From: Polytrichum commune
Lineage: Eukaryota > Streptophyta > Polytrichopsida > Polytrichales > Polytrichaceae
Direction: 5' to 3'
Length of the DNA stretch: 64,000 bases
Assembly: GCA_950295325.1 (NCBI GenBank)
Contig: OX485806.1
Coordinates: 45,255,169-45,319,168, forward strand
Shown one piece after another: positions 25,401-53,606 of the stretch. The position numbers and the translations under genes were made by a program. Within the stretch, counting starts at the first letter, position 1. Every line of letters begins with the position of its first letter. The notes below the pieces were generated by a model. The model ran no database searches. It had not been told where the DNA came from and saw only the letters and a list, made by a program, of their open reading frames with translations.

Positions 25401-28400
25401 CACTAACAGATCAGCAGTACCCTTACGACACCTGTTATTGAGACAGACAGTTATCAGTGTTCCCACTTTCAAAGACAAAGAGAATCATAACACCACATCT
25501 GAACCACAACAGATGTATATAGCATCACTGCATAGGGGCAGCATGATGTTCTAAGACATCCTATGAGGATTACTCAGCTCTGCCAAAGCTGTGCTACATG
25601 GTTAATCCACACTTGTGATGTATCCCGTTCTGGACTGCAAAAGTAAACAAGCAGTGCACTCACATTCAGTGGGTAACGGGGTGATCTCAACCTTTTGGAA
25701 GGGTGATGGACCACCAAAAGTTGTAGAAATTGTATGAAGGGACCTCGATTTTTGGAAGTCAACAGCTGAAAAAGCAATAGAGCTAAATGAGTTGTAATTC
25801 CAACTGTCTTCAGATTTGACACCGTACATTAGCATATCCACATAAATCAACTCCCTAGGAGCACATGTGCAGCAAATAACTTAGCCATGGGTTCATAGAA
25901 ACACAACTTTCAATAGCAATTTCTGAGGGTCGCAACACAAAGAAATCCACTAAAGCTCAATATCTTAGTGTTTGTCTGTTAATAGAGACATGATCTACTT
26001 CCATTGAGCTAAATGGTCATTCATTTACAAGAACCATGGGGCTGTGATCTGAAAACCATTTGCACCAAGTTTTCATTTTTAAGGTTGAATTCTCAATTTA
26101 TAACCAAATGTGATCTCAATCATGTGATGAAGCACCTGGTCCTTACCGGATTGAGACACTACACAGTTGCAGAAAGTGATATCCCAGTAAAGAATCTACT
26201 TATAGCCAATGCTGGCGATGATCTTCCAGTGAAACATTGGAACTTAAATAAAGGAGAAGTACAATTTCATCGAAGGGATCTGAAGGGTGAAATGGTCAGT
26301 AGAACTTGGGCCTTGAACACCTGTGAAAGACATTTAATAAGTTGGAACTACACGAACCCTCTCATCAAGCATAATTTGGAATGCTGTGGCAGTGGCTTCT
26401 TCAGTATCGTGAACTGATGGAACTGCCTATTCAAACCAAGGACACAAGATTTAGCTCCTCAGGACAAAAGGGGTGGCGACCATACCAATAACAATATGAC
26501 CAGCTTACTTTTAGAGCAGCTACTTCATAACATATGGACAACATCATTGAAGTTCATAAAGAGCGGTAGAGTGGGTTACCTGCACAATATCAGAGGAATG
26601 AGAACCAGCAGACAGTGCAGCTTCATGTGCAGTTGCATCAGATAACAAATATGTTCTGATCCAACAGACACAAAGCCACATTATCCTTTTGTACTCTTGG
26701 GGTTCTACTATGAAGATACAAGACAATAATGAAGTGTCTATGTTTGATGTGCATTGCATGCGATTAATCATTGACATGAAAAAGGAATCACATTAACAGC
26801 CAGAAACTCTATCACGGGATGGGGATAACAGTTTAGATTGCTTCTATGTACTTGGCAAGTTGCTTGTTGATCCAATCAAGAAGTTTTTCTGCAGAATAGA
26901 CATTTGTCACTTCCTCCAGCTCCTCTCCTTTTGCTATACGGTCTCCAGATGCAAGAATTGGAGGAGCAGCCCACAATAATGTTGGATAATATTTGACTGC
27001 AAATCTTGCACAAAGCTCTTGATTGATCTGTGCTGCCAATGTGACCAGAATTTCCATCACTGTGGCTGTAGAAGCAGTACTAAAGATGACCTTACACCCT
27101 ACTAGAAGCTATGCATCTACAATGGCTAGAACTCACAACAGACCATCTACTTGATCCATTTAAAAAATCCTCAACTTAGTTGCACCCACACCCAGATGTC
27201 AATAAACAGAACCACTATCAACATATGACGCCTAACAGAAAATCATCCGTCGAGCTTTGCAGTAAACAAAAGTGGCTCGCAGTAGTAAAACAAAGACTGA
27301 CAGAGAGAATCAAAAGATAACTTATTGGTGGGGAATAGATTAAACCACCAGCATAAATGATAAAAACTTTTTGAGGATAATACAAACTACAGAACAGGGT
27401 GGATGCAAGAATTTTAACAATACCTGATCAGCACAATCCACTTTGGCAAGGTACACTTCACCGGTGTGGACAGCGTTGGGCCCATTGAAAAGCCGAGCAA
27501 CCTTCTCATAATGTGGCTGCAGAATCCGCAAAATCCCCACATTAGGCTAGAGTGTCAAATCGGTACTCAAAAGTGAGTACTACACACAGCAGACATGGTG
27601 TCAGAAGCAGTTGTATGGAGCCTACGCCAAGAGATCGAATTCCATTATATTCATATATTCCTTGCGTTTGGAACCCAGAGATTCTACCAATGAAAACTCA
27701 ATGGCATGCAAGTAACAGCACAACAGGGTTATTTTTCAATACATCAGCTGACCTTGTAATTCTTGCACGCACCACACCTGCAATATCCCCAACATACCTT
27801 ATGTCAGACCAAGATGTGCACAGATCAATTTTCAGCACAAACATGGACCGTGGTGATGAACAAATTCCTGTTGAATGTGAGAATTGTTTGGATACTTGTG
27901 GTCCTTCTCACAGTAGTAAATAGAATGCTAGAACGCGTGAACGAAAATCGCAATGTTGGTCAAGCAGAACCTATCATACCCGCACCCTCGTTTCCTAATC
28001 TTGCAAAGCAACTACACAGAATCACAGAAGTGCAAGCATCTATTCACCTATAGACCATTCCTATGTTAGTTTCACCACAAAAGGAATGGGCGATTGCGAG
28101 TAACCAACAGATACTATCTAAGCATCACAAAAACAGTTGCTCTAACATTATATACTCACATCTTTTGACACTTTGCACCACTCCATGTAATGTTTAGTCC
28201 GTGCGATCCATTTTTTGGTGGAAATTCGAGGTCAGAACGACGGTATTGAATATTTGAACCAAAGAAATATGTGGGGCAGAGGAAGAGTGGAGGTCTGAGA
28301 CCGGCATCATGTACATACCAGTGGGCATAAAACTCCACCATGGCCCAAGTCGCAGGTGCTGCTGCCAAGGTGGAATTAAAAGTGGCCACAGTGACCTCAT

Positions 28401-28512
28401 GCACAACATCGTCAGGATCCTTCTGTCCGCCACTCCTGGCGCCCCATCGCGCCTGGGAGCTGCTCGCCAAAAGGAGCAGACACAGCGCAATTATGAGCAC
28501 TTGCTTCGCCAT
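22459..28512 (-). CDS. QSOX: Quiescin-sulfhydryl oxidase, 12 exons
   Basis: This is a secretory-pathway flavoprotein that makes disulfides in client proteins and reduces O2 to H2O2. Minus-strand exons: 28512-28319, 27777-27753, 27516-27424, 27027-26852, 26655-26580, 26426-26358, 25765-25692, 25431-25308, 24114-24083, 23854-23708, 23365-23299, 22842-22459. All introns are GT-AG and phases match, giving 486 residues (1461 bp with stop). Residues 1-21 are a signal peptide (MAKQVLIIALCLLLL). The thioredoxin domain has C66-G-A-C69, placed by a 25-bp exon. The ERV/FAD domain starts at about 278 (CGLWLLFHSLSVRV, then C324-Q-E-C327 and WLWQAHNE). A third pair, C387-S-T-C390, follows, then a membrane helix at about 454-476 and a basic tail. 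The length is slightly short of typical plant QSOX (about 500-530). In-frame ATGs also lie at 28527 and 28569; 28512 is chosen because the signal peptide begins there. Exon 6 could extend 6 bp to a GTAGTT donor. The gene looks intact. Confidence 0.93.
24083..24114 (-). other. QSOX: QSOX micro-exon 9
   Basis: This 32-bp exon lies between TGTGTAG and GTAAAAAT. It encodes VSCRGDKRGY and the first two bases of Asn, joining exon 8 (PGNFW) to exon 10 (CGLWLLFH). It supplies the CRG...RG[YF]xCGLW start of the ERV domain known from plant QSOX proteins. Confidence 0.82.
27753..27777 (-). other. QSOX: QSOX micro-exon 2 carrying the thioredoxin CxxC
   Basis: This 25-bp exon lies between TTGCAG and GTCAGC. 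It completes the Trp codon of exon 1 and encodes CGACKNYK, followed in phase by exon 3 (PHYEKVARLF). Reading straight upstream of exon 3 instead gives GILRILQ and loses both active-site cysteines. Confidence 0.88.
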
Positions 28513-29794
28513 GCAATGCAATTCCATGTGCAGAAGGTCTGCACTGAACAAAGTCGCCTCTCCTGGCACAAAGACCGCCCAGTTGCCTATGATACGAAAA
28601 GGGCTATCGTGTGGGATTCATAAAAGTGGAGGAAGGGATGGATCGAAGAAGTGATCGATCCAAAGGGAACCAGGCGGCAGCGAAACATCACTTAACAGAT
28701 TCACTAAACTAGTTTGACCAGTGCCGTCTGGTGGACGCGTAAAGCGCCGGCCAATGAACGGATAGATCCGGCAGGTACAGATAGATTGACTGATGAGGGG
28801 CTGATCACAGACGCCAGTTCAGACACCATTTCCGGCTGTGATAGTGTGAAAAGTGGTAGGCCATCATCTATTTCTCAACATAATCCCAGCAATTTCACGG
28901 TTGAAACCAAACGGAAATTTTGGTGCAATCGGGGCATGAGTGATTTCTTGAAAGACCTGGTTGGTAATAGCATGCCCACACTATGACCAACAACTAGCCC
29001 ACAACAGTGGGAAATTTTGCACTTGATAGGAGTCTCTTGGCTTGGCACATGGAAGCCCTGGCAGCCTTGGAGGACGTGGGCCACAACAGTGAAGTAATAA
29101 TTTGAACATGACAGTAAAAAACTACATTGAAAACACAACTACTTTTAACATTGCATAAAACCTATGCAATGTGTTTATTGCCTTGAGTAAATGCATTTTT
29201 CATTTTTACTACATGTTGCAACCTTTGGTTGTAGCATGGATTTAGCCACATTACCGCCTATCCAGCCTGCCAAACGGCGACATGCAATTGAAGTGATCCA
29301 TTTTGGGGCCATGTGCCCATCCCTTCTATCTTGAGTGCAATGAAATGAACATGCAAAATTGCATTACATTACATCCAATGAGGTTAATAGGAGTAGGACG
29401 AGAAAATCCTTCCTGACAACAAAAAATTATGGAAAGAAATGATTTTTTTTTAAAAAAAACCTATTCTTGTTGCTAAGGAGTATCGATCGGCCCTATTGTG
29501 TGCATGGCATAAGGGTAATCTTAGGACATGAATTCGAAGAAAATCTTATAAAAAACGGATTTTTCCAAAAAAAAATATCTAAGATCAATTTTTTGGCATT
29601 CTAAAGAAAGCACTAGCATATATGCCCAGAAGGTCATTGAAAACTTGCTTGGAATGCTCCCATTATCCCAAAAGTAGGAGGCATTTTCATAGGGTATCCC
29701 AAGGATATGGCCCGATGATATGGGGAGGTGTAGGTAGTCTTTTTCCCAAGTATGGGTTGGCTCTCATAATGGGAGAGGTCACTTCTCTTAGCCT
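28513..29794. other. QSOX upstream region and flank of the nested retroelements
   Basis: The first few hundred bases should include the QSOX 5' UTR and promoter (minus strand). I see no clear TATA box. From 28700 to 29790 there are only short frames and AT-rich runs. The last bases, AGCCT (29790-29794), are the left target-site copy of the copia element. Confidence 0.4.
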
Positions 29795-29951
29795 TGTTAT
29801 GAGAGAATAAAGATGGTATTTTGGACAGTATAAAGGTGCAATTATCCTAAGCTACCTGATACGGTCGAAGAGGGATTTTTAAGTATAAAAATAATAAAAT
29901 ATTAGTAAGTGCCACTTGTCACCATCTGAAGCACCCACGTGTTGGCCATAC
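29795..29951 (-). repeat. Copia 3' LTR, outer fragment
   Basis: This starts TGTTATGAGAG and matches 53156-53312 closely. It is cut at ...GGCCATAC by the gypsy insertion. The last four bases (ATAC, 29948-29951) recur at 39782-39785 as the insertion duplication. Confidence 0.92.
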
Positions 29952-30286
29952 TATCACGGTATGCGGCGTCGACGACTGCACCTTATCCGTTGGATTTCAT
30001 CCATCTAGATTTGGATGGATGAATATAGATGTGGAGAGGAAGGCTCCTAAGTAAGGAGCCTCCTCCTTGGCTTGGCATTCTTGCCAAGTCAAGTCTTGTG
30101 AGTTAGTGTGTGGAGAGAGCTTGTGTGAGGTGTAGATTGCATGATTTTGCAATAAATCTTGAGTTCTTCTCCCTCTACTTATACTCTTGGATTCTCCCTT
30201 GGTGGAGTGAGAGATAGCTTGACTAATTGTGTGCATTTGGAGAGAGATTTAGAGCTATTATGAGTGTTCTACTCTCTTACTTCTCA
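29952..30286 (+). repeat. Gypsy 5' LTR, lacking its first 108 bp
   Basis: From TATCACGG to TTACTTCTCA it matches 39349-39675, with an extra 7 bp near 30270. It has a perfect hairpin (GGCTCC...GGAGCC, near 30040), a second hairpin CTTGGC...GCCAAG, and an AATAAA at about 30151. The 106-bp TGTCGAG...CACGACA segment and GC that begin the 3' LTR are missing. Confidence 0.8.
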
Positions 30287-30288
30287 CT

Positions 30289-30306
30289 TGGCAAGAATGT
30301 GGATGA
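30289..30306 (+). other. Candidate primer-binding site
   Basis: TGGCAAGAATGTGGATG begins two bases after the CA end of the LTR, the usual position and TGG start for a tRNA-primed site. I cannot name the tRNA. Confidence 0.4.
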
Positions 30307-31723
30307 TTCCTTCTCTTTTCTTCAAATCTTGAGCTCCAACACTCGAGAAAGAGTGTGAAGACAAGTGGTTGCGAGATTTTGGAGTGGAGGAAGACAAACA
30401 TTGCGGATTCGTGGAGAAACAAGGAGGAAAAATGTGTGCTTGTGATGTGTGCACATCATTTTGAATTGTGGTGAGAAATTTCTGAATTTCCCACATAATT
30501 TAGTACCATTTGGTCGCTTGCAAGCTAAAATTCGCGCCATTGTTTGTTTGAAACGGATTCTTCATGCTAAGTGAAGAAGAAATTGATTCAATAAAAAAAA
30601 ATAGAAGGAAAGAGAGGCACCAGCTCCGGCTCCGGAGCAGAGCTCATGGCTGCCTTCCCCTTTCTGGTCGCGTCAGTCAGCGGCGAGGTCGGCAGCAGTC
30701 GGCGTCGGGGCGGCGGCAGTCGACGTCAGGGTCAGCAGCGGCGGGCTTGGCAACAGGTTGGACGACAAATACAATAGCAGCAGGCAGCTGCAGTAGCAGC
30801 AACAAGCAACTACTGCTGCTTGTTTCTGTTTTTTTTTAAATTTGGGTTCTTGTTTTTGTTTTTAATGCATTAATTCATTAAAAAGGAATTTTCTAAATTT
30901 TAATTTAATTAAATAATGAAACCTGATTTTTATTTTAATAAAATTAATAAATTAGTTTATGTTTCCTTCTCAATTTCTCATTTTTCTCTTTTCTCTAAGA
31001 GGTTAATTTCTTGGGCTCATTAATCAAGGATACAAAAAAAAAAAACCTAAGCTCTTATGAAATATTAAAAATACTTGGGATTTCTTTTTAGGAGTTGTAT
31101 TGTATGAAATTTCCAAAGGGAGTGTTATTAGAAATTGGGTGGCATGTGGAATTCCGTTCGGCCTCAAATAAATTATTATTAGGGTCGAATTGTGTTTGTC
31201 AACACATATTCCCGGCATTCTTGTGAGGAGTTATTCTTCGGTTGTAGTGGGAAGATGAGAGATGTGCATAGGTAGCATTTCATTTTCTTAAGCAACAGGG
31301 GCTCTTTGTTTTGACCACCAACCGCAGGCGGGTGCCGGTTGGAGGCGGTCAATTTTTAATTATGCTTAAGTGTTGTTTGGGGAAGGGGATCAAGTGTTGT
31401 TATTGCATTGTTCCTTGTATTTTGTTGTGGTATCTTCTCCCGTGGTGGGTTGTTGTGTTGGAGTCTTCCAACATTGCCCCATTTTTGTGTTGTCCTGGTT
31501 TATGATAGGGTATTGTGGGGGTGAGGTCGGAGTAATGACCGACGAGACCTTTGTTTGTGCACCAAGTGGGCGGTGCTTGTTTTCACTTGTGGTGAGGCTG
31601 GGTTAATGACCAGTAGACCATGTGGTGGTTGCAGGTGCAAGTTGCCTTTGACCTTTTTTTTCTTTGTACCTGGATACTAATTCATTTGGGTTGTTGATTT
31701 GGTGACCATTCCATTGTGGGTTT
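30307..31723 (+). other. Gypsy leader (5' untranslated region)
   Basis: About 1.4 kb contain no convincing gene. A GC-rich stretch of CGGCAG/CAGTCGGCG repeats lies at 30640-30800, followed by T-rich DNA. The Gag start codon at 31724 follows. Confidence 0.5.
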
Positions 31724-32881
31724 ATGGTTACAACTCGTATTCAACACTATCGTTCTTCGTCCCGAGGAGCATCGGAAGGTCATCCCTCGGACCTCTCGGA
31801 CGTTAAACCAGTAGTAGCACCCAACGAGGTTTTTCAGCCTACTTCAGCGTGGGGGACTATCACTCGGTCTCATGTCCTGTGGGTGGGAACCTTTGACGAT
31901 ATGGAAGAGGAGACTAGGGGAGGGATACGGGACCGGTTTTCCGGTCGAGCAGGGACCATTTCTCTGCAAGACTGGAAAATCCGGTTTCGTACGTGGATGC
32001 GAGAGAAACGCCAACGCAATACCAATTTTAATGATTGGTATGCGTTCGAGCTTCTGCCTCAGCATTTGGAGCATGAAGCTCTCCAAATTTATGAGCAGTG
32101 GACGGAGGCTCATTGGATGGAGCTACACCAGGTGGAGCGGTACTGGGAGACTCGGGTTGAGTTGGTATTCGCATTGAAGGAAGGCGCAACTTCCAGTTTC
32201 ATGGCCGTCCCTGAGGTTAAATCGGAGGTGCCGAAGGGAGTATTTGTGGTGGACGTGGAGGGAGCTTCTCCTGGTGAACCCAAGGATAAGGGTTCTGCTC
32301 CCGCTGTGGCGAGTACGTCGAGCCCCATTCTTCCATTCTCCCGTTATGCCCAGGCTACTCAGGCGGCTTTAGCCTCTTTGGGGGCTCCGCCAGTTTTTGA
32401 GCCGTTGCGGGTATTTGAGCTGCATCTACATGAGGAGTACGGAGGTTTTCGTCGGGACCAGATGCAGCGGATACAAGATTTTAGACACGAGATGAACGAT
32501 ACACCTCGTACCATGTATACGTGGTTGGCGAGGTTTGCCAGAGAATCTGGAGGTGTGTTTGCGGAAAGTCAATTGGTGAAGGTGTTTTTGTCCAAAATTG
32601 ACAAACGCCTCCTTGACTTGGCGCTGCCCAGGATCATCATGGATTATGGTGGTCGGACGACACTCGCTGAGGCATTCGCCATTGTGGAGCAGAGTGATCG
32701 TGCATTGTGTCAGCACGATGCCACTGATTTGGTGTCCCTGCTAGTAGATTCTAGCAAATCCCGAAGAGTTCTGGTTGCGGCTGTGGGATTGGCGGAGGCC
32801 GAGGTAGACAAGACCATGTATCGTTGGTCTTGTGGGCAGGCCAGCCACGCTAAGAAGGACTGTCCTTCAAAGCAAAGGTAA
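31724..32881 (+). pseudogene. gag: Gag region with damaged zinc knuckle
   Basis: This is the structural capsid region: 385 codons to the first in-frame stop. Two helical, Trp-rich segments (about residues 85-150 and 225-330, the latter with LARFARESGG and LVKVFLSKID) resemble retrotransposon Gag. Between them is an Ala/Ser/Pro-rich linker. The end carries a CCHC-like knuckle (WSCGQASHAKKDC, about residues 364-376) whose first Cys position is Arg (CGT at 32821-32823). A second, intact knuckle follows beyond the stop (CSHCGRNNHTVENC, 32978-33019). The ATG at 31724 is the first in frame after the leader. Confidence 0.8.
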
Positions 32882-33779
32882 GCCCAGACCGTCACTACTC
32901 CGAAGCGGAAACCATTTGTTCCCGCTAAGGGCTCGGCGAAGGGGACGACGGGTAATCAGTTACCCAAGCAGTTGAGGTGTTCCCATTGTGGGCGGAACAA
33001 TCACACGGTAGAGAACTGTTTTGCTCTCCATCCTGAAAAACGTCTTTCTTCCGACCGGGAGAAGACGTTGGAAGTGAAGATTGGAGCCATGGAAGAGAGG
33101 TTCAAAAGCTTGGCGTCATCCAGCCAAATTTTGGCCTCACCGTCTTCCTCCGAAGCTCAGGCTAGTTCTTCCACTCCGGATTACTATATGTTCGGAGCCT
33201 CGGGCGAGGTGGTGACTTCCGCGGCCATGACACGTGCTCAAGCCGTGTCACAATCCATACCTTCGACCACAAATGAATATGTGGCAAGCTCGCGAGCTCG
33301 GGACAATGCGCCCGCGGACCAAATTGGTCAGGCACAACTACCATTATCTTTTGGATTGGCCGATGCCGTCCAATCTGTCAGTGGTCGTCATCCGAACGAT
33401 GAGGTTTCACATTCAGCGACCGATGTGGCGCACACGTTGGCATCCAAGGCGTTGCACACACCTTTGTTCACGGCCATGGAGTGGTCATCGCCAGAGTTCC
33501 AACCTGCTAAGGTTTTTCACTTAGCAGGTAGGATTTTGGAAGAGAAGGCATCCTTACCTTCTCTGACTGTGGCTCAAGCCACTACGGACATCCCTGCTTC
33601 TGAAGATCCTGAGGATGTGGCCAAACGGCGAGAGAGACTTGCAGCAGAGACCATTGCGTCTTTTGACGCACACGCCTCAAATGACAAGGCACCGACCACG
33701 TCTTATGACTCACCAGTATCCGCGGGTACAACCTATCTGTCTGATGTCGCTGCTAGACCTGTCCGCGAGCGCCGCGGCA

Positions 33780-34200
33780 TTCGACCCGGAGTTGTGCGTA
33801 TGGTGAATGATACCAGAATTTTGGTGGTCAGTCGCACTGGGAGCAATGCTACTCGGGTTGCTCCCCGTTGTGTGATGATGGATTCAGGGGCACAGCCAGT
33901 TATGATCGGCAAGAGGTTTGCCCAAGAGTTGAGGTTGACGGCCGAGGATTTGGCTCCCTGTCCATTCACCATTGTCACATCCATTGGTCACGTGGAGCGG
34001 GCCATGTGTTATACTCGAGAGCCATTACAGCTTAGCTTCCGAGTGAAGCATGGAGATTCACCTGCACCTCTTCTTCTTAGGTGTGCGGTGACGGATGCGA
34101 CCAACTATGACATTTTAGTTGGTCAGCAAGCACTTTACCCTCTTGATTTTGGATTGGACAACTGGACTGAGGAGGCGTGGATCCGACCAGGTTGGTCGGC
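33780..34200 (+). pseudogene. Retropepsin-like aspartic protease domain
   Basis: The motif MMDSGAQPVMIGKRF (D-S-G codons at 33881-33889) is the catalytic D-[ST]-G of retroviral-type aspartic proteases. It lies about 300 residues after the second zinc knuckle. The following ILVGQQALYPLDFGLDNW (near 34112) matches the flap/ILG-type second half. The role is polyprotein cleavage. No stop falls inside this domain. A Ser/Thr/Ala-rich linker of about 260 residues separates it from Gag. Confidence 0.8.
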
Positions 34201-34549
34201 TGGGGATGGCTGCAGGGAACTTATTCCCATGGCTTTCGCGGCGGCCACGACCATAGCACCATTATCTATGGTATTTGGATGTGGTACTATGGTGGACACA
34301 TTGCCTTATGGTTCCGCATTGTTGGAGGAGTCATTGGCATTCATGGGGAGTACAGACGATCAACGGGATATGACACCTAAGGGTGCATTGGTGCGGCATC
34401 CCAAGGATCCCCTTCCTCCTTGGCGTGTTTCCGCCGAGCTATTTTGGAGGTGCGAGGATATTGTTCACTCTCTCACTCCTAGGATACCGGTCATACCGGC
34501 TGTCCTCTCGGCATTGGCACAGCCCATTTTAAGGCAGCCGCCAGACGCG

Positions 34550-35520
34550 GGGATTACTTTGGTGGAACTGTTTGGGGGCATCGGCACAGGCTTAGCGGCT
34601 GTATTGGAGGCTGGCCTCACGGTTAGACGGTATGTCTATGTGGACAACTCTCAAGTGTCCACCCGTGTGGCTCGTCACCATCTTCACCAATTGATGGTAT
34701 TGTACCCCCAGTAGTTACCTCCAACTGCCATTCGTGGGTGTTTTTCACGTCTCCCTCGTGATGTTACACTCATCAGTGAGGCCGACTTACGACACTTGGG
34801 TCCGGTGGATATGATAATTGCAGGATGGCCATGCCAGGGCCATTCACGCGCTGGAGCCGGCCAAGGTCTAGAGGATCCCAGGTCTAGTCTATTTTGGGAC
34901 CTCATCCGCCTCATGCAGTGGTGGTTTTCCCACCAACATACCCCGCCAGGGTATATATTCAAGAATGTACCATTGTTGGGAGACCCTCGGGACAAGGTGT
35001 TGGAAGGCGATCATTATGTTCGTCAACACCTTGGAGATCCCATTTTTGTAGATGCCGCGAGCATTGGTTCTTATGCCCACCGGCCTCGGTGGATTTGGAC
35101 CAACCTCGCACCGTCATCTACTTTGGCCACAGCAATTTCTATAGTACCTCCACCTTTTGATCAGAAGGTGGATAACATCTTGGATCCAAACCGGACCTCT
35201 TTGCCGGTTGTTCGGGATGATTTACCCCCGTTGGCATTAGTCAACAAAGTGGGGGCACAACGGAGGGCCTTTCCCACCTTTATGACGTTTCCACAGTCAT
35301 TCGCCTTCCGCGATCGGGGGCCGGGTATGGTGTGGGATGCTAACACCAAAACCCACACTGAACCCTTGGCTGATGAACGAGAGCGTGCCATGGGCTTCCG
35401 CACTGGTACCACCGCAGCTCCTGGCCTTTCTGAGGGCCAACGACGCTTCGTATTGGGCCAAGCCATGGATCTCCATACCATGGTGTGGATTGTTAGTTTA
35501 TGCCTTGCATTGCAACGGCA
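34550..35520 (+). pseudogene. C5 cytosine DNA methyltransferase domain, DNMT3/DRM-like
   Basis: Motif I (LVELFGGIGTGLAAVLEAGL, 34559-34618) is the AdoMet-binding FxGxG loop. Motif IV (AGWPCQGHS) has the catalytic Cys codon at 34832-34834. DPRSSLFWDLIRLMQ follows. Motif VI, normally ENV, reads KNV with Lys at 34961-34963. Motif VIII-like AHRPRWIWTNL lies near 35074-35106, and motifs IX-X (RAMGFRTG, LGQAMDLHTM) near 35385-35485. The order I-IV-VI-VIII-IX-X within about 320 residues, with the DNMT3-like GPxDxIIxGxPC phrasing, points to the DNMT3/DRM branch rather than DNMT1/CMT. There is no BAH, UBA or PWWP domain. An in-frame TAG (34712) and the loss of the ENV Glu make this copy inactive. It lies in the same frame between PR and RT, so it was part of the element's polyprotein. 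Confidence 0.92.
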
Positions 35521-35803
35521 TCATGGTGACCAGTTATTGTCTCTGGGGGCAGAGGATTCTGGTCAGGGGGCACAACGGTCCACATCCATGAAGGAGGGAA
35601 TTGATGTCAGGGTTGGAGAAGCCGAACGAATCTTTCGATTCGAGCAGCAGGTAATGGAGGAGCTCCGAGCTCAACGAGTTTATACTGCTTTGGCTTCTTC
35701 ACCGCCGGTGGTGGCTTCATCATCACATATTGGTGGTGATGAAGAGGAGATGGACTCTACTGCTAGCACGGAGGTTGGGGGCATGGTTAATGCACCCTCC
35801 TCT

Positions 35804-35815
35804 CAATAGCAGTTA
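35804..35815 (+). promoter_or_regulatory. Leaky-stop context CAA-TAG-CAG-TTA
   Basis: The in-frame stop at 35807-35809 lies after the methyltransferase and an acidic/Ser-rich linker, and just before the reverse transcriptase. Its context, CAA UAG CAG UUA, fits the UAG-CAR-YYA readthrough consensus known from plant RNA viruses and some other mRNAs. None of the other six stops has it. Confidence 0.5.
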
Positions 35816-35899
35816 GAGTCCGTGCCAGCACCAGGTGGCTCTCTTCTAGTGGAAAGGGAGACCACAGAGTTTGATGATTGGCCGCTTGAATTAGGCCCT

Positions 35900-36660
35900 C
35901 GTCTCACTGGTGTTGAGGCACGGAAGGTATGAGCATTTATTCGCTCGTACCATAGATGTTTTGTTTTTAGTCTTCAGGATCTTGAAGGTTATAAAGGAAA
36001 ATCCATCCACATTTAGTTGGAGGACGACCATCACATTTTTAGGAGACCTTACATGCTTAGTGTTTCCGAGCGGATTGGCGTTCAGGCTCGTTGCCGAGAG
36101 CTCTTGGCAGCAGGGCTAATCGAACTTTCCAACGGGGAGTATGCTTGTGCTACGATTATGCCATCGAAGAAGGATATCTTTGGCAATTGGACGGAGAAGC
36201 GGATGTGTGGGGATTACCGTCCAATTAATCGGAAGACCAAGTCGAATCGGTATCCTATGCCGATCCCGGAGGAGTTGTTCGATGCCATCGAATTTTCTCG
36301 GGTCTTTAGCACCTTGGACTTGAAATCCGGATATCACCAACTTCTATTACTTACGGGAGATCGGGTGAAGACCGCATTTTGGGGAGTTGATCAAGATGGG
36401 AAAGATCAACTTTATCATTGGAAGTTTCTTCCATTTGGCCTGAAAAATGCACCCGCTGAGTTTTAGCGGGTGATGGATCAGGTTCTCTCTGGCTTGCCCT
36501 TTGCTCAGTGTTACATAGACGATGTGATCATCTTCAGCACAACACCACAGGAGCATGTGAGGCATCTTCAAGCCGTTTTTCAATGGTTGCAGCGGTGGGG
36601 ATTGCGCTTGCACCACGGCAAGTGCAAGTTTTTCCATGACCGGCTGGCATATCTAGGGCA
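35900..36660 (+). pseudogene. Reverse transcriptase domain (Ty3/gypsy)
   Basis: Motifs in order are FRRPYMLSVSER, CATIMPSKKD, CGDYRPINRKTKSNRYP, FSTLDLKSGYHQ (first catalytic Asp), WKFLPFGLKNAPAEF, then the active site YIDD (36512-36523) followed by VIIFS. HGKCKFF and YLGHMIV end the domain. This copies element RNA into DNA. Stops at 35930, 36014 and 36464 interrupt it; the catalytic residues are intact. The domain boundaries fit a Ty3-type RT of about 200 residues. Confidence 0.92.
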
Positions 36661-37330
36661 TATGATTGTTTCAGGAAGTCCTGGGGTACAACAAGCTAAG
36701 GTGGACGCCTTGCAGAAGATTCCGGCACCGGTTGATGTGTCGAGACTTCGTGCTTTCTTGGGTTTGGCGAATTACTATCGGCGATTCATCAAGAACTTTA
36801 GCTTGATCGCCAAGCCTCTCACCATTCTCACGAGCAAGGACCAACCATGGACTTGGGGTTGTGAGCAACAACAGGCGTTTGAGACATTGAAGCAGAAACT
36901 GGGTACGGCTCCAGTGCTTCGACGTCGAGATGTCTTCAAATCTTTCCAGTTGCATACGGATTGGAGTTCATTGGGTTTGGGAGCAGTTCTTACTCCCAAG
37001 GATGATTTTGGCCGGGAATATGTTGTTGCTTACGCTTCGCGAAGCAATAACACGGCGGAGGCTAATTATTCATCCTACGAGGGAGAAGCATTGACGGCGG
37101 TATGGGCTATTGCCCATTTTCGGCCGTATCCTTATGGTCAGCACTTTACTTTAGTGACTGACCATCAGCCGTTACGGTGGCTTATGGAGTCGGATAAGCT
37201 TACTTGCAAGCTTGCTAGGTGGGCTTTGTTACTCCAGGAATATGACTTTGAGGTGGTACACCGTGCTAGAATTACCAACATGGATGCAGATGGACTCTCA
37301 CGCAATCCAAGTCCTTCAGATGAGGACTTG
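36661..37330 (+). pseudogene. Connection and RNase H domain
   Basis: The region FLGLANYYRRFIKNFS, typical of the Ty3 RT-RNase H connection, is followed by the RNase H active-site motifs QLHTDWSSLGLGAVL (Asp), YEGEALTAVWAIAHF (Glu) and LVTDHQPLRWLM (Asp), ending with GLSRNP. RNase H removes the RNA strand after cDNA synthesis. No stop is present, and all acidic residues are retained. It is in the same frame as RT and integrase. Confidence 0.92.
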
Positions 37331-37599
37331 ACTGGGGCCAGGTGGCATCGAGATTGTGATCGAGAGGCGGTTCCAGGTTGGCACGCGGCTGCCTACCTCA
37401 TTTTATTTTCTAGTGCATCTGTTGAGATTCTGATACAGGGCTCAGATAATGAGACTGATCGGCCTCAAGCTATTGCAGATATATGGGAGGATCTTCCCGT
37501 ATTGCATAAGCTTCAACAGGGTACCTTTCCTTTGTCTATTTCGGCAATGGAAAGGGATAGGATTGGACATCGAGTAACAAGGTTCTGTTGGGAGAACGG

Positions 37600-38720
37600 T
37601 TTGTTATTTCGATTGTGGCCGGATGGCACAAGGCGTATTGTTCCTAGGCCGGATCAGAGGGCCTCCTTGGTGCGACAAGTGCACGAGGAACTTGGTCATT
37701 TTGGCATACATAGGACACATTCGATGTTGCGTGGCCAATATTGGTGGACTGGCATGTATCAGAAGGTGGCTGCCTATGTCGGGAGGTGTGAAGTTTGTGA
37801 CCGGGTCAGGTCTAGCTTTAACACCTTATCACCTCAGTTACAGCCCTTACCTATCATGGGATTGGGCTACTGTTGGTCGCTCGACTTTGCAGGGCCGTTG
37901 GTGGTTACACCACGTGGAGCAAAGTACGTTTTGGTGATGGTGGAGTATTTTAGCAAGTGGATTGAACTTGTTGCTCTACCCCAAAACTCGACAGAGTTGG
38001 CCGCGGCCGCCTTTTTGGATCGTGTGTTAGCACGTTTTGGAGCACCGGCTGAGGTATTGACGGACCAAAGGAGGGAGTTTCTTGGTGCTTTTGAGGAGTT
38101 GTACACTGAGGCGCTCATAGATCACCGTACCACCTCTAGGGTTCATCCGGAGGCAGATGGTTTGGCTGAACGGGTTGTTCAGACAACCAAGTGTGGTTTG
38201 AGGAAGTATGGATTACTTCGGGGAAGCCACCGAGATTGGGACCTTATGTTGCCTTGGATTGCTATGGGCTATCGATTTAGTAGGCAGGCCTCTTTGGCAT
38301 CCTACAGTCCGTATCAGTTATTGTATGGACGTGAGCCTATTCTCCCGAGTTCTATTCAGGAAAAGTTAGCTCATGTTGTGGACCTGGATGACCCAAACAT
38401 TTGGGCAGAGTGTTTACAGGAGTGGGCTCAATTCTTCCAGAAAGCCATGCCTATGGCCATGGAGAATTTGTCCATTGCTCAGCACCGTGACACATTGCGT
38501 TATGCACGCATTCGCAGTGGTCCTTACCGACCTCAGTTGCGGAGATTCCGGCAAGGGGATTATATCTATCTCCAACGTGAGGCGCCTACGACATTGGATG
38601 TCAGGGCGAGGCGTACTATCCTTCAGGTGAAGGAGGTATTGCCAAGTGGTTTGTTGTTGTTGGAAAGCAAGGATGGCAGGGAATGTCGCGAGCATTCCAA
38701 AAATTGTGCCCCATGTCATC
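37600..38720 (+). pseudogene. Integrase domain with HHCC zinc site
   Basis: An HHCC site (HEELGHFGIHRTH ... CEVC, about 37681-37800) is followed by the catalytic core: LDFAGPLVV (Asp), VLTDQRREFLG (Asp) and HPEADGLAERVV (Glu). A C-terminal FRQGDYIYL...RRTILQVKEVLPSGLLLLE segment resembles the GPY/F-type end of gypsy integrases. In most relatives TDQG is found; here it is TDQR, a change next to the second Asp. The frame is open throughout. No chromodomain is seen; the PHD finger occupies the C-terminal position instead. Confidence 0.92.
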
Positions 38721-38776
38721 TACCTATTGGGGGTACAGTTCATCCTGAACTGGCCGTCGTGCGAGAGAGTCTTCCA

Positions 38777-38911
38777 TGTTCTGTGTGTGGAGAGAAGAAA
38801 TGAGCGGCTACTATGCTCTTGTGTGATCAGTATCAACGCGGTTGGCACATGGCATGCTTGAGGCCACCCTTGACTTCTCTACCATTTGGACAGTGGAGTT
38901 GTCCTCGCTGT
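38777..38911 (+). pseudogene. C-terminal PHD-type zinc finger
   Basis: Directly after integrase the frame reads CSVC (38777-38788), a stop (TGA 38801), then LLCDQYQRGWHMACLRPPL and WSCPRC (ends 38911). The spacing matches the PHD-finger C4HC3 pattern (CxxC ... CDxC...H..C ... W.CP.C), with one ligand Cys replaced by Tyr (TAT 38831-38833). PHD fingers read histone H3 tails, so in intact copies it could steer integration or bind chromatin; that is inference. The frame continues to TAA at 38954, which I take as the original end of the polyprotein. Confidence 0.8.
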
Positions 38912-39225
38912 CGAGGATCTTCGGTACTTGGTGCTTCTACCAATCGTACTCAATAATCATGTGTGGTTTTCATCATCTTGTGCCTATCCAAATGGAAAAT
39001 GAGGAGTTATGGCTTAGAGACGCAATCAACATGAGGCGGTGGATTTAATTCTTTGGGATCTGATGGCCAAACATCAAAGGCGATTAAGGATGGGGCTCAC
39101 CTTGCACCCAGCCTACAGTTCCTTGGAATAACGTTTACCAAACTAGTTAGTTGCGGAGCAATCTTTCATTATCCATGCCCTTTAGATTGGCGTTGGTCCT
39201 AGCTGCTTGGCGGGACTCCATAGTC

Positions 39226-39240
39226 AGCTGAGAGGGGGCA
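39226..39240 (+). other. Gypsy polypurine tract
   Basis: AGCTGAGAGGGGGCA lies directly before TGTCGAG, the start of the 3' LTR. This is the expected plus-strand primer position. Confidence 0.8.
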
Positions 39241-39675
39241 TGTCGAGCTGTGTTGTTTATGTGTGACTTTGCTATGTTTTAGTGTTGTTTGTTAGTGGTG
39301 GTTGGTACTCGAGCTGCAGTGACACATAATCGCTATTTACACGACAGCTATCACGGTATGCGGCGTCGACGGCCGCACCTTATCCGTTGGGTTTCATCCA
39401 TCTAGATTTGGATGGATGAATATAGATGTGGAGAGGAAGGCTCCTATGTGAGGAACCTCCTCCTTGGCTTGGCATTTTTGCCAAGTCAAGTCTTGTGAGT
39501 TAGTGTGTGGAGAGAGTTTGTGTGAGGTGTGGATTGCATGATTTTGCAATAAATCTTGAGTTCTTCTCCCTCTACTTATACTCTTGGATTCTCCCTTGGT
39601 GGAATGAGAGATAGCTTGACTAATTGTGTGCATTTGGAGAGAGATTTAGAGCTATTATGAGTGTTCTTACTTCTC
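39241..39675 (+). repeat. Gypsy 3' LTR, full length
   Basis: It starts TGTCGAGCTG and is made of a 106-bp first part (39241-39346), GC, and the part shared with the 5' end (39349-39675). It has an AATAAA near 39549. It ends TTACTTCTC directly against the next TGTCGAG, one or two bases short of the CA end seen at 30285-30286. Confidence 0.82.
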
Positions 39676-39781
39676 TGTCGAGGTGTGTTGTTTATGTGTG
39701 ACTTTGCTATGTTTTAATGTTGTTTGTTAGTGGTGGTTGGTACTCGAGCTGCAGTAACACACGATCGTTATTTACACGACA
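39676..39781 (+). repeat. Second, partial gypsy LTR copy
   Basis: These 106 bp match 39241-39346 with about six differences (TGTCGAG...CACGACA) and then stop exactly at the ATAC duplication. It is the part missing from the 5' end of the element. Confidence 0.85.
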
Positions 39782-40079
39782 ATACCTACACAAGTTGAGG
39801 TCCAGGTTTATACCCTCGGGATAACCGGGGTTTGACTGCACTAACTTAACTTAACTCCCTAATACCCTCGGGATACCCGGTTTATAATATGTAGTGTTAA
39901 AGCTTCAAGCTGCAGATACCCAGGTTAAGTCTCGGGTCACTATTAAACTATATACCCTGGTTCCAGGGTATCCACCCTAAGCCTCAAATGGTTTTCTACC
40001 CTAAGCCTCATATGGCTTTTACACCTTAAGCCTCATATAGTTAATACATCAGATTGTCTTTAATTCTAATTCTCTAACA
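39782..40079 (-). repeat. Copia 3' LTR, inner fragment
   Basis: It continues from ATAC as CTACACAAGTTGAGG to TCTCTAACA and matches 53309-53606. On the minus strand it begins TGTTAGAG, directly after the polypurine tract. Confidence 0.92.
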
Positions 40080-40467: not shown

Positions 40468-41700
40468 CTAGTTCAGTATCCGTTCCATCGTCCGTAGCCA
40501 CACCGTCTCGCGAGCAGCTTCATGAAAAGCCGGTAACTCCGTGTGATTTGTCGAAGTCGCGGTAACTGTTTGCTTGGTTGATTTCCATGATATCGGGGCA
40601 CCACATTTCAGGAAAATGTAATCGGTTTGTGAATTTCCTGCATTCAAATCAGTTCTAAATCCGGAATTTGCAAAACCTTGGATTTTAGGGTGGTTAATTT
40701 TGTGGTAGTATAACCCAAGGTCGGATGTCCTGTGCAGGTATCTTAACAAATGTTTAACTCCATTCCAGTGTCTTAAGGTCGGGTTCTGGCTGTGCTTAGC
40801 TAGGATACTCGTAGCAAAGGCAATATCGGGTCTTGTATGAGTTGTCAGGTACGTAAATGCATCAACCGCGGTGAGGTACTTAGGCTTATCAACTACCTCC
40901 TCCTCCTCCTCCTCCTCACGAGGTTGGTAGGGATCATTGTTACTCTTACTGCGTCCAATCATGGGAGCTGCTAACGGATTTGCCTTGTCCATTTGAAACA
41001 TCTTAAGGATTTTTTGCACATAAGCTTGTTGGTGTAAGAGGATACCACCATTGGACACGTAATGGACTTGAAGGCCTAGGCAATACGTAGTCTGGCGTAG
41101 GTACTTCATATCAGAATTTTTGGTTAGAATTTCTTGTGCATACGTACATGATTTAGGCGTGCCTAGGATGTTTAAATCATCAACATACACGGCAAGGATA
41201 AAAAATCTTGAATTTGTACTGTAAGTAAAAATGCAAGGTAGGGTGTTATTGTGTATAAACCCATGTGATATGAGGAAATGGCAAAGGTGGTGATACCACG
41301 TTCTGCCCAACTGTTTCAAACCATACAAAGCCTTACAAATGCGTAAACTCATAAATTTACCTGGTTTCGGCTTAGGAATGAATTTCAAAAATCCGGGTGG
41401 TGGGGTTAGATGGAGTTTGGTATCGAGGTTACCGTGTAGGTAGGCGGTAACGACATCCAACAAATACATTTTCAAAGAAAATTGAATTGACAAGGCTAAG
41501 AGGTACCTGAATGACACAGTGTCCATAACAGGTGAATAAGTTTGGTCATAATCAATACCGGTCCGTTGGAAAAGCCTTGGGCGACAAGCCTAACCTTATA
41601 TCGAAGGACTCGTCCTTGGGAATCAAGTTTCCGGGTAAAAATTAGTTTGTGACCTATAATGGTTTATCTAGGTCGATGGAAATATTGCCAAACACACGAT
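40468..41700 (-). pseudogene. Copia reverse transcriptase and RNase H
   Basis: A frame of 352 codons (41526-40468) begins with the RT part (LDVVTAYLHGNL, KALYGLKQLGRTWY) and has the active site YVDDLNILG. It continues into CLGLQVHY, YLTTHTRPDIAFATS, GFANSGFRTD and STNHTELPAFHEAARE, the copia RNase H order. In relatives the GFANSG motif is GYADAG, so an Asp is lost. The N-terminal RT portion continues upstream (42268-41654) in other frames with breaks near 41530-41650. A run of GAG codons makes a Glu-rich insert near 40905. The pieces come from one copia Pol broken by frameshifts. Confidence 0.88.
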
Positions 41701-43470: not shown

Positions 43471-43597
43471 GGGTTTGATGAGTGTTGCTTGTAGATAGTC
43501 ATATAGTTTTTGATGTCTGCTATGGGTTAAAGGTTTTCAAAGTTGTAGGTTTGACGGGTTTGGGTGCGGAGTTGTTGTAACTTCCAATATATATTAA

Positions 43598-44599: not shown

Positions 44600-44639
44600 A
44601 TTGAGATAATATGTATATACCAAAAATACAAACAATATT

Positions 44640-45227
44640 TCAGTATATTAGGATATACTGAATATATCAAAAGTCAGAGACATAATACAAAACAGTTTAT
44701 TGAAATTAAAATATTGTATTGGGTATACAATATATAGGTTAGTAAAACAGTATACAAAATGTTATACTGTAGACAATATACAAAATATAGTATGTACTGT
44801 ATATGGACAGAATATTGTTATCACTATGCAGACAATATTTAAATTGTATACAAACAGTATACAGATTGTATACAAAATACAAAATACAAACATAATGTCT
44901 GTATATAAGCAGGGTATATATACAGAGTATATATATAAAAAAATAGGATTAAAAAAGAGTGAGATAAAATACTTCTGAGTTAAGTCATAATACTTACAGT
45001 ATTAAGACAGAGTACGGGTATGCGTTGAAAACAAGTTAGTATATACTGGATAAAGTATACAAATAATATATATTTGTATAAAACATGATAGAATGGAGAT
45101 AGAATGCTTACAGTATTTGAGACTGAAAATATCTCAGAAAACTTGTGAGTATATACAAATAGTGTATTTTTGTATAAACATGGTATAGTCAGAAGACTTA
45201 CATTTTTTATACTGAAAATATAAAAGT

Positions 45228-50749: not shown

Positions 50750-50755
50750 GACCAA

Positions 50756-53155: not shown

Positions 53156-53606
53156 TGTTGTGAGAGAATAAAGATGGTATTTTGGACAGTATAAAGGTGC
53201 AATTCTCTTGAGCTACCTGATACGGTAGAAGAAGGATTTATAAGTATTAAAATAATAAAATATTAGTAAGTGCCACTTGTCACCATCTGAAGCACCCACG
53301 TGTTGGCCATACCTACACCGGTTGAGGTCCATGTTTATACCCCCGGGATAACCGGGGTTTGACTGCACTAAATTAACTTAACTCCCTAATACCCTCGGGA
53401 TACCCGGTTTATAATCTGTAGTATTAAAGCCTCAATCTGCATATGCCCGGGTTAAGTCCCGGGTGACTATTAAACTATATACCCTGGGTCCAGGGTATCC
53501 ACCTTAAGCCTCAAATGGCTTTCTACCCTAAGCCTCAAATGGCTTTTACACCCTAAGCCTCATATGGTTAATACATCAGATTGTCTTTAATTCTAATTCT
53601 CTAACA
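53156..53606 (-). repeat. Copia 5' LTR, complete
   Basis: This 451-bp block starts TGTTGTGAGAG and ends TCTCTAACA (plus-strand reading). It matches 29795-29951 and 39786-40079 end to end, which defines the gypsy insertion in the other LTR. It contains short inverted phrases such as ATACCCTGG/CCAGGGTAT. Confidence 0.93.

What the first reader, a model, noticed from the sequence alone, without database searches (positions are those of the whole stretch)
34550..35520. DNA methyltransferase captured inside a Ty3/gypsy polyprotein
Seen: a complete order of C5-methyltransferase motifs (I, IV with Pro-Cys-Gln, VI, VIII, IX, X) lies in the same frame between the retropepsin and reverse transcriptase of a gypsy element. 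Known from memory: captured C5 methyltransferases in retrotransposons have been reported in dinoflagellates and charophyte algae; I know of no routine annotation of them in other plants. Inference: an element that methylates DNA could mark its own copies or target sites, or blunt host silencing. The domain looks DNMT3/DRM-like rather than DNMT1/CMT-like.
Basis: partly seen in the sequence, partly recalled or inferred. Interest (0 to 1): 0.92.

Follow-up and report, generated by a model that had tools for sequence, protein, structure and literature searches.

The report
Moss retrotransposon carrying a DNA methyltransferase
A family of jumping elements in what is probably a moss genome carries its own DNMT3-type DNA-methylating enzyme, encoded so that it should be made along with the particle's shell protein, which makes it possible to ask what a genome parasite gains from the very mark that normally silences it.

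Summary
Confirmed and extended. Window 29952-39781 is a Ty3/gypsy-type element with a 4-bp target duplication (ATAC). It encodes a DNMT3-type C5-methyltransferase between protease and reverse transcriptase. This copy is dead: a stop lies inside the methyltransferase and the catalytic ENV reads KNV. The domain is not private to this locus: PF00145 gives 123 matches in the host genome; 28 others were checked, all of this family.

Beyond the finding: (1) the methyltransferase ends ORF1 (gag-protease-DNMT3), separated from RT-RNase H-integrase by UAG-CARYYA, the tobacco-mosaic-type leaky stop, in 28 of 28 checked copies, the window and a metagenomic relative; (2) the integrase ends in a PHD finger; (3) terminal repeats are split (a1-coding-b1-a2-b2), DIRS-like, yet a DDE integrase leaves 4-bp duplications; (4) the primer site is complementary to a segment of repeat a, with compensatory changes, implying self-priming.

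Precedent: KnitGypsy-Dnmt3 of Klebsormidium. Relatives occur in Marchantia, Calypogeia, Sphagnum and Closterium. Most likely role, inferred: methylating the element's own cDNA from within Gag particles. New variant of a known kind.

The parts
29948..29951 (.). left target-site duplication ATAC
   Evidence: alignment to the related empty site at 53156-53606
29952..30285 (+). a1: left split repeat and true 5' end of the element (TATCACGG here; TGTCACG[G/T] in 15 of 15 other copies whose boundary was found)
30076..30089 (+). self-primer segment, perfectly complementary to the primer site at 30286; loop plus 3' arm of a 10-bp hairpin
30286..30299 (+). primer-binding site directly after a1
30300..31723 (+). 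untranslated leader
   Evidence: sequence before the gag frame
31724..32878 (+). gag; first CCHC knuckle at 32831-32863; ended here by a TAA at 32879 that is a lesion (the long ORF1s of relatives run on)
   Evidence: no Pfam family matched gag
32882..33748 (+). second zinc knuckle (32978-33019) and spacer
33749..34240 (+). retropepsin-like protease (DSGAQ within 33875-33895)
   Evidence: Pfam PF13650 E 0.04, weak; aligned in relatives, some of which carry the Pfam hit
34544..35500 (+). DNMT3-type C5-methyltransferase; stop at 34712 inside, ENV changed to KNV
35807..35815 (+). leaky stop TAG CAG TTA (UAG-CARYYA) between ORF1 (gag-PR-DNMT3) and ORF2
   Evidence: motif definition PMC2754532
35810..38953 (+). 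ORF2 frame: RT, RNase H, integrase, PHD; lesions at 35930, 36014, 36464, 38801
36017..37330 (+). reverse transcriptase and RNase H (YIDD at 36512-36523)
   Evidence: Pfam RVT_1, RT_RNaseH
37331..38776 (+). integrase (H2C2, rve) and C-terminal region
   Evidence: Pfam PF17921, PF00665
38777..38911 (+). PHD finger fused to the integrase C-terminus; here broken by TGA 38801 and by Tyr at a place where 8 of 8 copies have Cys
   Evidence: Pfam PF00628 5.2e-10; intact in 8 of 8 other copies examined
39230..39238 (+). polypurine tract GAGAGGGGG before b1
39241..39346 (+). b1: first copy of the right split repeat
39347..39348 (+). GC between b1 and a2 (same two bases in 7 of 7 copies with a readable 3' end, and in L029)
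39349..39675 (+). a2: second copy of the left split repeat (10 of 327 aligned sites differ from a1; K2P 0.0315)
39676..39781 (+). b2: second copy of the right split repeat (94% identical to b1) and 3' end of the element
39782..39785 (.). right target-site duplication ATAC
53156..53606 (.). related repeat without the insertion (empty site)
   Evidence: 93% identity to both flanks

Best explanation
The window holds one decayed copy of a many-copy, recently mobile Ty3/gypsy-type family that has built a DNMT3-type cytosine methyltransferase into the end of its Gag-protease ORF. Shown from sequence: ORF1 = gag-zinc knuckles-protease-DNMT3; a UAG-CARYYA stop; ORF2 = RT-RNase H-DDE integrase-PHD; split repeats a1...b1-a2-b2 with 4-bp target duplications; a primer site complementary to part of repeat a. 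Inferred: most ribosomes stop at the UAG, so DNMT3 is made at Gag stoichiometry and packaged throughout the particle, while RT and integrase come from readthrough. Reverse transcription is self-primed and yields b-a-coding-b-a cDNA; joining its ends gives a circle with two b-a units, which the integrase opens at a b|a junction. The packaged DNMT3 methylates the element's own double-stranded cDNA before or during integration, so that it arrives already looking like host DNA (evading sensing or decay), or is silenced quickly at low cost to the host; the PHD finger steers integration or methylation by reading the histone H3 tail.
For: Domain identity and order. DNMT3 nearest by sequence and fold (model of the relative L029, mean pLDDT 92.6). 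123 PF00145 matches in the host genome including the window's own, 36 of 123 in frames of 1,000 or more aa without a stop (my count from the list); the 28 others that I checked all align to ORF1 of this family, with PCQ and ENV kept in 28 of 28. Purifying selection on the methyltransferase: dN/dS 0.17 window against subfamily 2, 0.23 within it, 0.49 within the very young subfamily 1. UAG-CARYYA at the ORF1 end or its matching place in 28 of 28 copies plus the window and L029, in five versions that differ only at the degenerate R/Y places. TMV-type context gave 32% readthrough in a plant assay (PMC2754532, passages). 4-bp duplications in 7 of 7 copies with both ends read plus the window. Identical a1 and a2 in 5 of those 7. 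Self-primer complementarity of 12-15 nt in 18 of 20 copies, the window and L029, in four co-varying versions. Split repeats like KnitGypsy-Dnmt3 (PMC5890265).
Against: No activity, expression or methylation data. In yeast the KnitGypsy DNMT3 showed no methylation, which its authors call inconclusive. The CpG ratio of the element (0.73) is not lower than that of the rest of the window (0.57), so strong self-methylation has left no visible depletion here. dN/dS 0.49 in subfamily 1 is only moderately below 1. The scan for complementary pairs also found other pairs of 12-21 nt in some leaders (mostly A/T-rich repeats, and one 12-mer shared by subfamily 1), so length alone is not proof; position and co-variation carry the case. 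Transcription start is unknown: no TATA box at a constant distance from the self-primer. The circle step is deduced from end geometry alone. Leaky-stop layout is not universal: Closterium and some metagenomic relatives have DNMT3 and RT in one predicted protein. The copies studied were chosen for long open frames (20) or high score (8), so the sample leans to intact ones; 94 of the 123 matches were not looked at, and some may be host methyltransferases (28 checked, and the window).
Confidence: 0.6

Rival explanations
1. The DNMT3 domain acts on the host rather than on the element's cDNA: packaged or free DNMT3 changes methylation of target chromatin or competes with host silencing enzymes, and the PHD finger supplies chromatin targeting.
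For: PHD finger on the integrase and DNMT3 in one element; animal DNMT3s pair a methyltransferase with an H3-reading PHD-like module (recalled); the authors of PMC5890265 discuss effects on the host methylome.
Against: The DNMT3 lies in the Gag-side ORF and the PHD in the readthrough ORF, so they need not be one protein after processing; no methylome data were available.
Confidence: 0.2
2. The methyltransferase no longer works as an enzyme and is kept as a structural or nucleic-acid-binding part of Gag.
For: It is encoded with Gag; this window copy and two relatives (P0043, P0138) have K for the catalytic Glu.
Against: Catalytic Cys in 80 of 81 and Glu in 81 of 84 retroelement rows with a letter there (85 rows kept for a match of at least 260 residues), and PCQ and ENV in 28 of 28 genomic copies, are hard to explain without catalysis.
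Confidence: 0.1
3. A private insertion of a host DNMT3 exon or retrocopy into one gypsy copy.
For: None found.
Against: 28 of 28 other genomic copies checked have the same layout; relatives in other bryophytes, Closterium and metagenomes; methyltransferase and RT trees agree where resolved.
Confidence: 0.01
4. The split repeats are an ordinary LTR pair (b-a) whose copies happen to be permuted by aberrant integration.
For: Polypurine tract before b1 and primer site after a1 define a normal b-a LTR for reverse transcription.
Against: 15 of 15 copies with a found left boundary start at TGTCACG[G/T], each with a different flank, and 7 of 7 with both ends read have the same permuted order with 4-bp duplications. 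In L029 the TG...CA type sequences lie at a-start and b-end, not at b-start and a-end. Five of 20 copies gave no left boundary and one of 8 no readable 3' repeat, so other end types are not excluded.
Confidence: 0.07

Closest known systems
KnitGypsy-Dnmt3 of Klebsormidium nitens (de Mendoza et al. 2018, PMC5890265; parts 1-4 of 7 of the text read)
   Same: Gypsy element with a DNMT3-type domain in its coding frame, non-rearranged motifs, conserved key residues under purifying selection, DIRS-like repeat order.
   Different: Here probably in a moss, with the DNMT3 on the Gag side of a UAG-CARYYA stop, a PHD finger on the integrase, self-priming complementarity and mapped 4-bp duplications; a term search of the main text found no 'PHD', and the text describes the domain as in the Pol ORF. 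K. nitens sequences themselves were not compared.
SymbioDIRS-Dnmt3 and SymbioLINE-Dnmt of dinoflagellates (same paper)
   Same: Retroelement-borne DNMTs; DIRS versions have split repeats and showed de novo CG methylation in yeast.
   Different: Tyrosine recombinase or LINE endonuclease instead of DDE integrase; stated by the authors to be independent of the charophyte case.
Marchantia, Calypogeia, Sphagnum and Closterium proteins with DNA_methylase and gypsy-type regions
   Same: Same domain family; in the RT tree Marchantia is next to the window-L029 pair, Closterium (the only other named host there) further off.
   Different: Listed mostly as hypothetical or unnamed proteins; Closterium has DNMT3 and RT in one predicted protein.
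Tcn1 / Tf1-Sushi chromoviruses (PMC6317226, passages)
   Same: Predicted self-priming of reverse transcription in moss and club-moss elements.
   Different: Chromoviruses carry chromodomains; a term search of that survey found no 'methyltransferase' or 'PHD'. No chromodomain was found here.
PAT/DIRS-type tyrosine-recombinase elements
   Same: Split direct repeats A1-coding-B1-A2-B2.
   Different: Here the integrase is rve/DDE and leaves 4-bp target duplications.

Membership tests
Ty3/gypsy LTR retrotransposon | domain order protease-RT-RNase H-integrase with rve core | tested here: met
   (protease weak)
Ty3/gypsy LTR retrotransposon | short target-site duplication from a DDE integrase | tested here: met
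   4 bp in 7 of 7 copies with both ends read plus the window
Ty3/gypsy LTR retrotransposon | one LTR at each end | tested here: not met
   split repeats a1...b1-a2-b2; so called gypsy-type by its enzymes, with DIRS-like repeats
KnitGypsy-Dnmt3 kind (gypsy with DNMT3 and DIRS-like repeats) | DNMT3-type domain, unrearranged, inside the gypsy coding frame | tested here: met
KnitGypsy-Dnmt3 kind (gypsy with DNMT3 and DIRS-like repeats) | DIRS-like repeat arrangement | tested here: met
   description in PMC5890265 legend
KnitGypsy-Dnmt3 kind (gypsy with DNMT3 and DIRS-like repeats) | common descent with the K. nitens element | not tested
   no K. nitens sequence was identified by name among the hits
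DIRS/PAT | tyrosine recombinase | tested here: not met
   rve and integrase zinc-binding domains found instead
DNMT3 | closest relation to DNMT3 among C5-methyltransferases with solved structures | tested here: met
DNMT3 | position in a tree with host DNMT3, DRM, CMT and MET1 | not tested
DRM | rearranged motif order (VI-X before I-IV, recalled) | tested here: not met
   order I, IV, VI, VIII, IX/X
TMV-type readthrough site | UAG followed by CARYYA with an open downstream frame | tested here: met
   28 of 28 copies, the window and L029; ORF2 of 1,047 aa in L029; downstream frame open to the end of the fetched piece in 16 of the 17 copies whose ORF1 ends there; motif from PMC2754532
TMV-type readthrough site | measured readthrough | not testable with these tools
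   needs a reporter assay
Tf1-type self-priming | primer site complementary to a part of the element that can lie near the transcript's 5' end | tested here: met
   12-15 nt, four co-varying versions
Tf1-type self-priming | that segment lies at the exact RNA 5' end | not testable with these tools
   no transcript data; no conserved TATA

The most novel reading that the evidence does not exclude
A DDE-integrase retrotransposon lineage of mosses and probably other bryophytes uses a de novo DNA methyltransferase as a Gag-level particle component that methylates its own cDNA, and integrates from a two-unit circle opened at a junction inside the LTR that reverse transcription defines, so that its genomic ends are permuted relative to a normal LTR element.
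Probability: 0.4. Interest if true: 0.85.

Novelty: new variant of a known kind. Interest (0 to 1): 0.66.

Why it matters
Cytosine methylation is the host's main way of silencing transposons, so a young element family that keeps a working-looking DNMT3 under selection is a puzzle. In this family the enzyme lies on the Gag side of a leaky stop, which predicts its dose and place (inside the particle with the cDNA) and turns a loose idea, self-methylation of cDNA, into a direct test. The host looks like a land plant rather than an alga, and identical repeats with open ORF1 frames suggest recent movement, so the test could be made in a growing plant. The split-repeat, apparently self-primed, DDE-integrated life cycle also bears on how DIRS-like repeats arise without a tyrosine recombinase.

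Tried and rejected
Private insertion of a host exon: rejected by the other copies and the trees. DRM identity: rejected by motif order. DNMT1/CMT chains did not appear in the sequence search of solved structures at E up to 10 or among the 50 fold matches shown, which by itself excludes nothing. tRNA priming: the primer sites of subfamily 1 and L029 lack the TGG expected of a tRNA site, so rejected there; the window-type site does contain TGG. TATA-based start site: seen at a fitting distance in L029 only, not in the 7 genomic copies printed, so dropped. CpG depletion as a trace of self-methylation: not seen. Relatives in viral contigs: 28 loci, partial matches of 29-61% that I took for ordinary phage methyltransferases and did not study; a junction pattern found nothing. 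Whether sister gypsy elements in this genome lack the DNMT3 could not be tested: the RT search did not complete. The genomic copies L041, L043, L054, L056 and L057 gave no left boundary in my pieces, and L038 no readable 3' repeat in the 1.5 kb fetched. The two copies without a detected self-primer pair are L054 and L057.

Full report
What is there. In window 31706-38803 one forward frame (frame 2) is open except for a handful of stops: 32879, 34712, 35807, 35930, 36014, 36464 and 38801. Pfam finds a weak retropepsin (E 0.04), DNA_methylase (2.6e-11), RVT_1, RT_RNaseH, integrase zinc-binding and rve, in that order, and nothing for gag; a PHD finger follows the integrase (5.2e-10). Its motifs run in the order I, IV, VI, VIII, IX/X (positions; motif numbers recalled), which is not the rearranged order of plant DRMs.

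The copy is dead. A stop lies inside the methyltransferase at 34712; motif VI reads KNV; other stops fall in gag, twice between ORF1 and RT, in RT and in the PHD finger. In 28 other copies of the host genome the motif reads ENV in 28 of 28 and PCQ is kept in 28 of 28. Among 85 retroelement rows (those of the 152 proteins with a match of at least 260 residues, plus the window and L029), the catalytic Cys is kept in 80 of 81 rows with a letter there and the Glu in 81 of 84.

Ends of the element. The left flank and the right flank both match one uninterrupted stretch at 53156-53606 at 93%. The join shows a 4-bp target duplication, ATAC, with the element running from 29952 to 39781. The repeats are a1 (29952-30285), b1 (39241-39346), a2 (39349-39675) and b2 (39676-39781), with two bases GC between b1 and a2, a polypurine tract just before b1, and the primer site directly after a1. 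a1 and a2 differ at 10 of 327 aligned sites (9 transitions, 1 transversion; K2P 0.0315); b1 and b2 are 94% identical. This is the split order a1-coding-b1-a2-b2 known from DIRS and PAT elements.

The family in the host genome. The window lies in an assembly of 407.8 Mb in 64 contigs; contigs C1 to C7, whose lengths I saw, add up to about 406 Mb. A search for PF00145 gave 123 scored matches of 353 candidates, the window's own among them and all 123 over the curated cut-off; by my count of the list 36 of the 123 lie in a frame of at least 1,000 aa without a stop. The family is a general one (the same search rings in 10 of 14 control genomes), and I checked 28 of the 122 other matches: 20 chosen for long frames (upstream pieces) and the 8 best-scoring, whose loci the search gave. 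All 28 align to ORF1 of this element. Of the 20, 15 gave a left boundary: all 15 start at TGTCACG followed by G or T, each with a different flank. The other five (L041, L043, L054, L056, L057) gave none. For 8 of the 20 I also fetched the 3' end: 7 of 8 show polypurine tract-b1-GC-a2-b2 with 4-bp duplications (gatg, gaga, accc, ggtt, gaag, tctt, catc), and L038 did not show it in the piece fetched. a1 against a2 was 334/334, 333/333, 332/334, 332/333, 432/432, 432/432 and 434/434, so these insertions are very young. The PHD finger is intact in 8 of 8 copies examined.

Leaky stop. In 17 of the 20 copies the long ORF1 (1,356-1,386 aa) ends at TAG followed by CARYYA; in 16 of those 17 the same frame is then open to the end of the fetched piece (100-117 codons), in L039 for 37 codons. 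The other three are interrupted earlier and carry the motif downstream at about the matching place: L056 in the frame of its ORF1, L055 and L057 after a frame change (L056 also has the nine letters once more, in its first 600 bases). All 8 additional loci carry it too, 5 in the frame read and 3 after a frame change. With the window (TAG CAG TTA) and the metagenomic contig L029 (TAG CAA TCA) this makes 30 of 30. Five versions occur (CAATCA, CAACCA, CAATTA, CAGCCA, CAGTTA) and they differ only at the R and Y places. A random six-base stretch of this composition fits at about 0.0013, and on the forward strand TAG-CARYYA occurs once in window 31001-39000 and once in L029. PMC2754532 (passages) names CARYYA after UAG as essential for tobacco mosaic virus readthrough and reports 32% readthrough of that sequence in a plant assay. 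L029 continues in the same frame for 1,047 codons of RT, RNase H, integrase and PHD. Fifteen database relatives (P0090-P0102, P0104, P0106) likewise hold gag, protease and DNMT3 in one frame that ends soon after the DNMT3 with no RT. The DNMT3 is thus encoded with Gag. This is not universal: Closterium and some metagenomic proteins have DNMT3 and RT in one predicted protein, and P0144 has the order RT-RNase H-DNMT3-integrase-PHD by BLAST, though Pfam gave no DNA_methylase hit there. Some Marchantia gene models join DNMT3 to RT, which may reflect predicted introns.

Self-priming. The 14 bases at the primer site 30286 are perfectly complementary to 30076-30089 inside a1, and in L029 13 bases pair in the same way; 30-base stretches of the two leaders gave at most 9 against their repeat a. 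The pair was found in 18 of 20 genomic copies (not in L054 and L057). The same scan of whole leaders also found other complementary pairs of 12-21 nt, mostly A/T-rich repeats and one 12-mer shared by subfamily 1, so length alone is not proof. There are four versions of the segment: ATTCTTGCCAAGT (window subfamily), ATTGTTGTCAAGT (subfamily 1), ATCTTTGTCAAGT (L029) and ATCTTTTACAAGT (L056, a third lineage whose repeat ends I did not find, so that its pair is assigned by likeness). Every difference is matched on the other side. Two of the differing places lie in the loop of the local hairpin predicted for the window and L029, and in subfamily 1 the hairpin would have a mismatch where the primer-site pairing has none, so pairing with the primer site explains the changes better than the hairpin. 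This resembles Tf1 (recalled), and self-priming was predicted for Tcn1 chromoviruses of mosses and club-mosses (PMC6317226, passages). The RNA start is unknown; I found no TATA box at a constant distance.

Relatives and host. The protein searches found relatives in Marchantia, Calypogeia, Sphagnum, Closterium and many unnamed metagenomic contigs; one search scored only the 8,000 candidates sharing most words. In the methyltransferase tree the window copy groups with P0001, P0008 and P0010. Trees of RT (14 rows) and of DNMT3 (12 of these) agree on window + L029 with Marchantia next, the latter at modest support (81/79) in the DNMT3 tree, and keep Closterium apart; most other forks of the DNMT3 tree are open. 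L029 is filed under a cyanobacterial genome and P0006 under a bacterial one, which I read as plant DNA in metagenome bins. The host is most likely a moss: its sulfhydryl-oxidase exons are nearest, among named proteins, to Ceratodon (61% over 42% of the query), then to liverworts at 46-47%. Seven chromosomes would fit Polytrichaceae, which is recall.

How it probably works. Ordinary logic of reverse transcription, with the primer site after a and the polypurine tract before b, gives cDNA of the form b-a-coding-b-a. Genomic copies are a-coding-b-a-b. Joining the cDNA ends and opening the circle at a b|a junction gives exactly this order, and the conserved GC at that junction would be lost on integration. 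This is inference from geometry. The DNMT3, at Gag dose, would sit with the cDNA in the particle; methylating it is the simplest role. Against strong self-methylation, the element's CpG ratio (0.73) is not below that of the rest of the window (0.57).

What is known. PMC5890265 (parts 1-4 of 7 read) reports the Klebsormidium gypsy element with DNMT3 and DIRS-like repeats, and dinoflagellate DIRS and LINE elements with DNMTs. PMC12344493 (passages) repeats that some DNMT3s are embedded in retrotransposons of streptophytes and dinoflagellates (it says LTR Copia and DIRS). The passages seen of PMC6453930 and PMC10952607 concern host DNMT3 in mosses, and those of PMC5784723 list five Marchantia methyltransferases without DNMT3. 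In the open-licence library my searches turned up no report of such elements in land plants, of the leaky stop, of the PHD finger or of self-priming in them (mostly seen as listings); subscription papers and preprints were not searchable. I therefore rate this a new variant of a known kind.

Noticed in passing
L029 (CADCWO010000201.1) and P0006: Contigs filed as cyanobacterial and Obscuribacterales genomes carry this plant retroelement; L029 closes on itself with a 127-bp overlap (9,158 bp ring). Probably plant contamination of metagenome bins.
   Followed up: partly
P0144, P0133, P0139, P0066, P0067 (metagenomic proteins): Relatives with the methyltransferase next to the integrase rather than before RT, some with PHD: a second position of the domain, so capture or shuffling may have happened more than once.
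   Followed up: partly
L038-L057 (host genome copies): At least three lineages of the element coexist in one genome; subfamilies 1 and 2 differ from each other about as much as subfamily 1 does from L029 (pN 0.23 and 0.18).
   Followed up: partly
window 22462-28617, minus strand: Exons of a plant quiescin-sulfhydryl oxidase gene, nearest among named proteins to Ceratodon purpureus; used to place the host.
   Followed up: yes
window 49187-50764 (-) and 47901-48995 (+): A PIF/Harbinger-type element: DDE_Tnp_4 transposase (9e-32) and a Myb/SANT-like protein (below its curated cut-off), both with long open frames.
   Followed up: partly
window 40471-44647, minus strand: Broken Ty1/copia element (RVT_2, gag_pre-integrase) just downstream; the gypsy element sits in a repeat whose uninterrupted relative is at 53 kb.
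   Followed up: partly
window 9347-9754, minus strand: DDE_1 transposase fragment (2.5e-13).
   Followed up: no
window 10511-11258 and 17638-18375: A 0.75-kb inverted repeat pair, 84% identical, with further related copies between.
   Followed up: no
L038-L040, L042, L044-L046, L051 (subfamily 1): The element begins TGTCACgtgagGTGACA, a short palindrome exactly at its integrase end.
   Followed up: no
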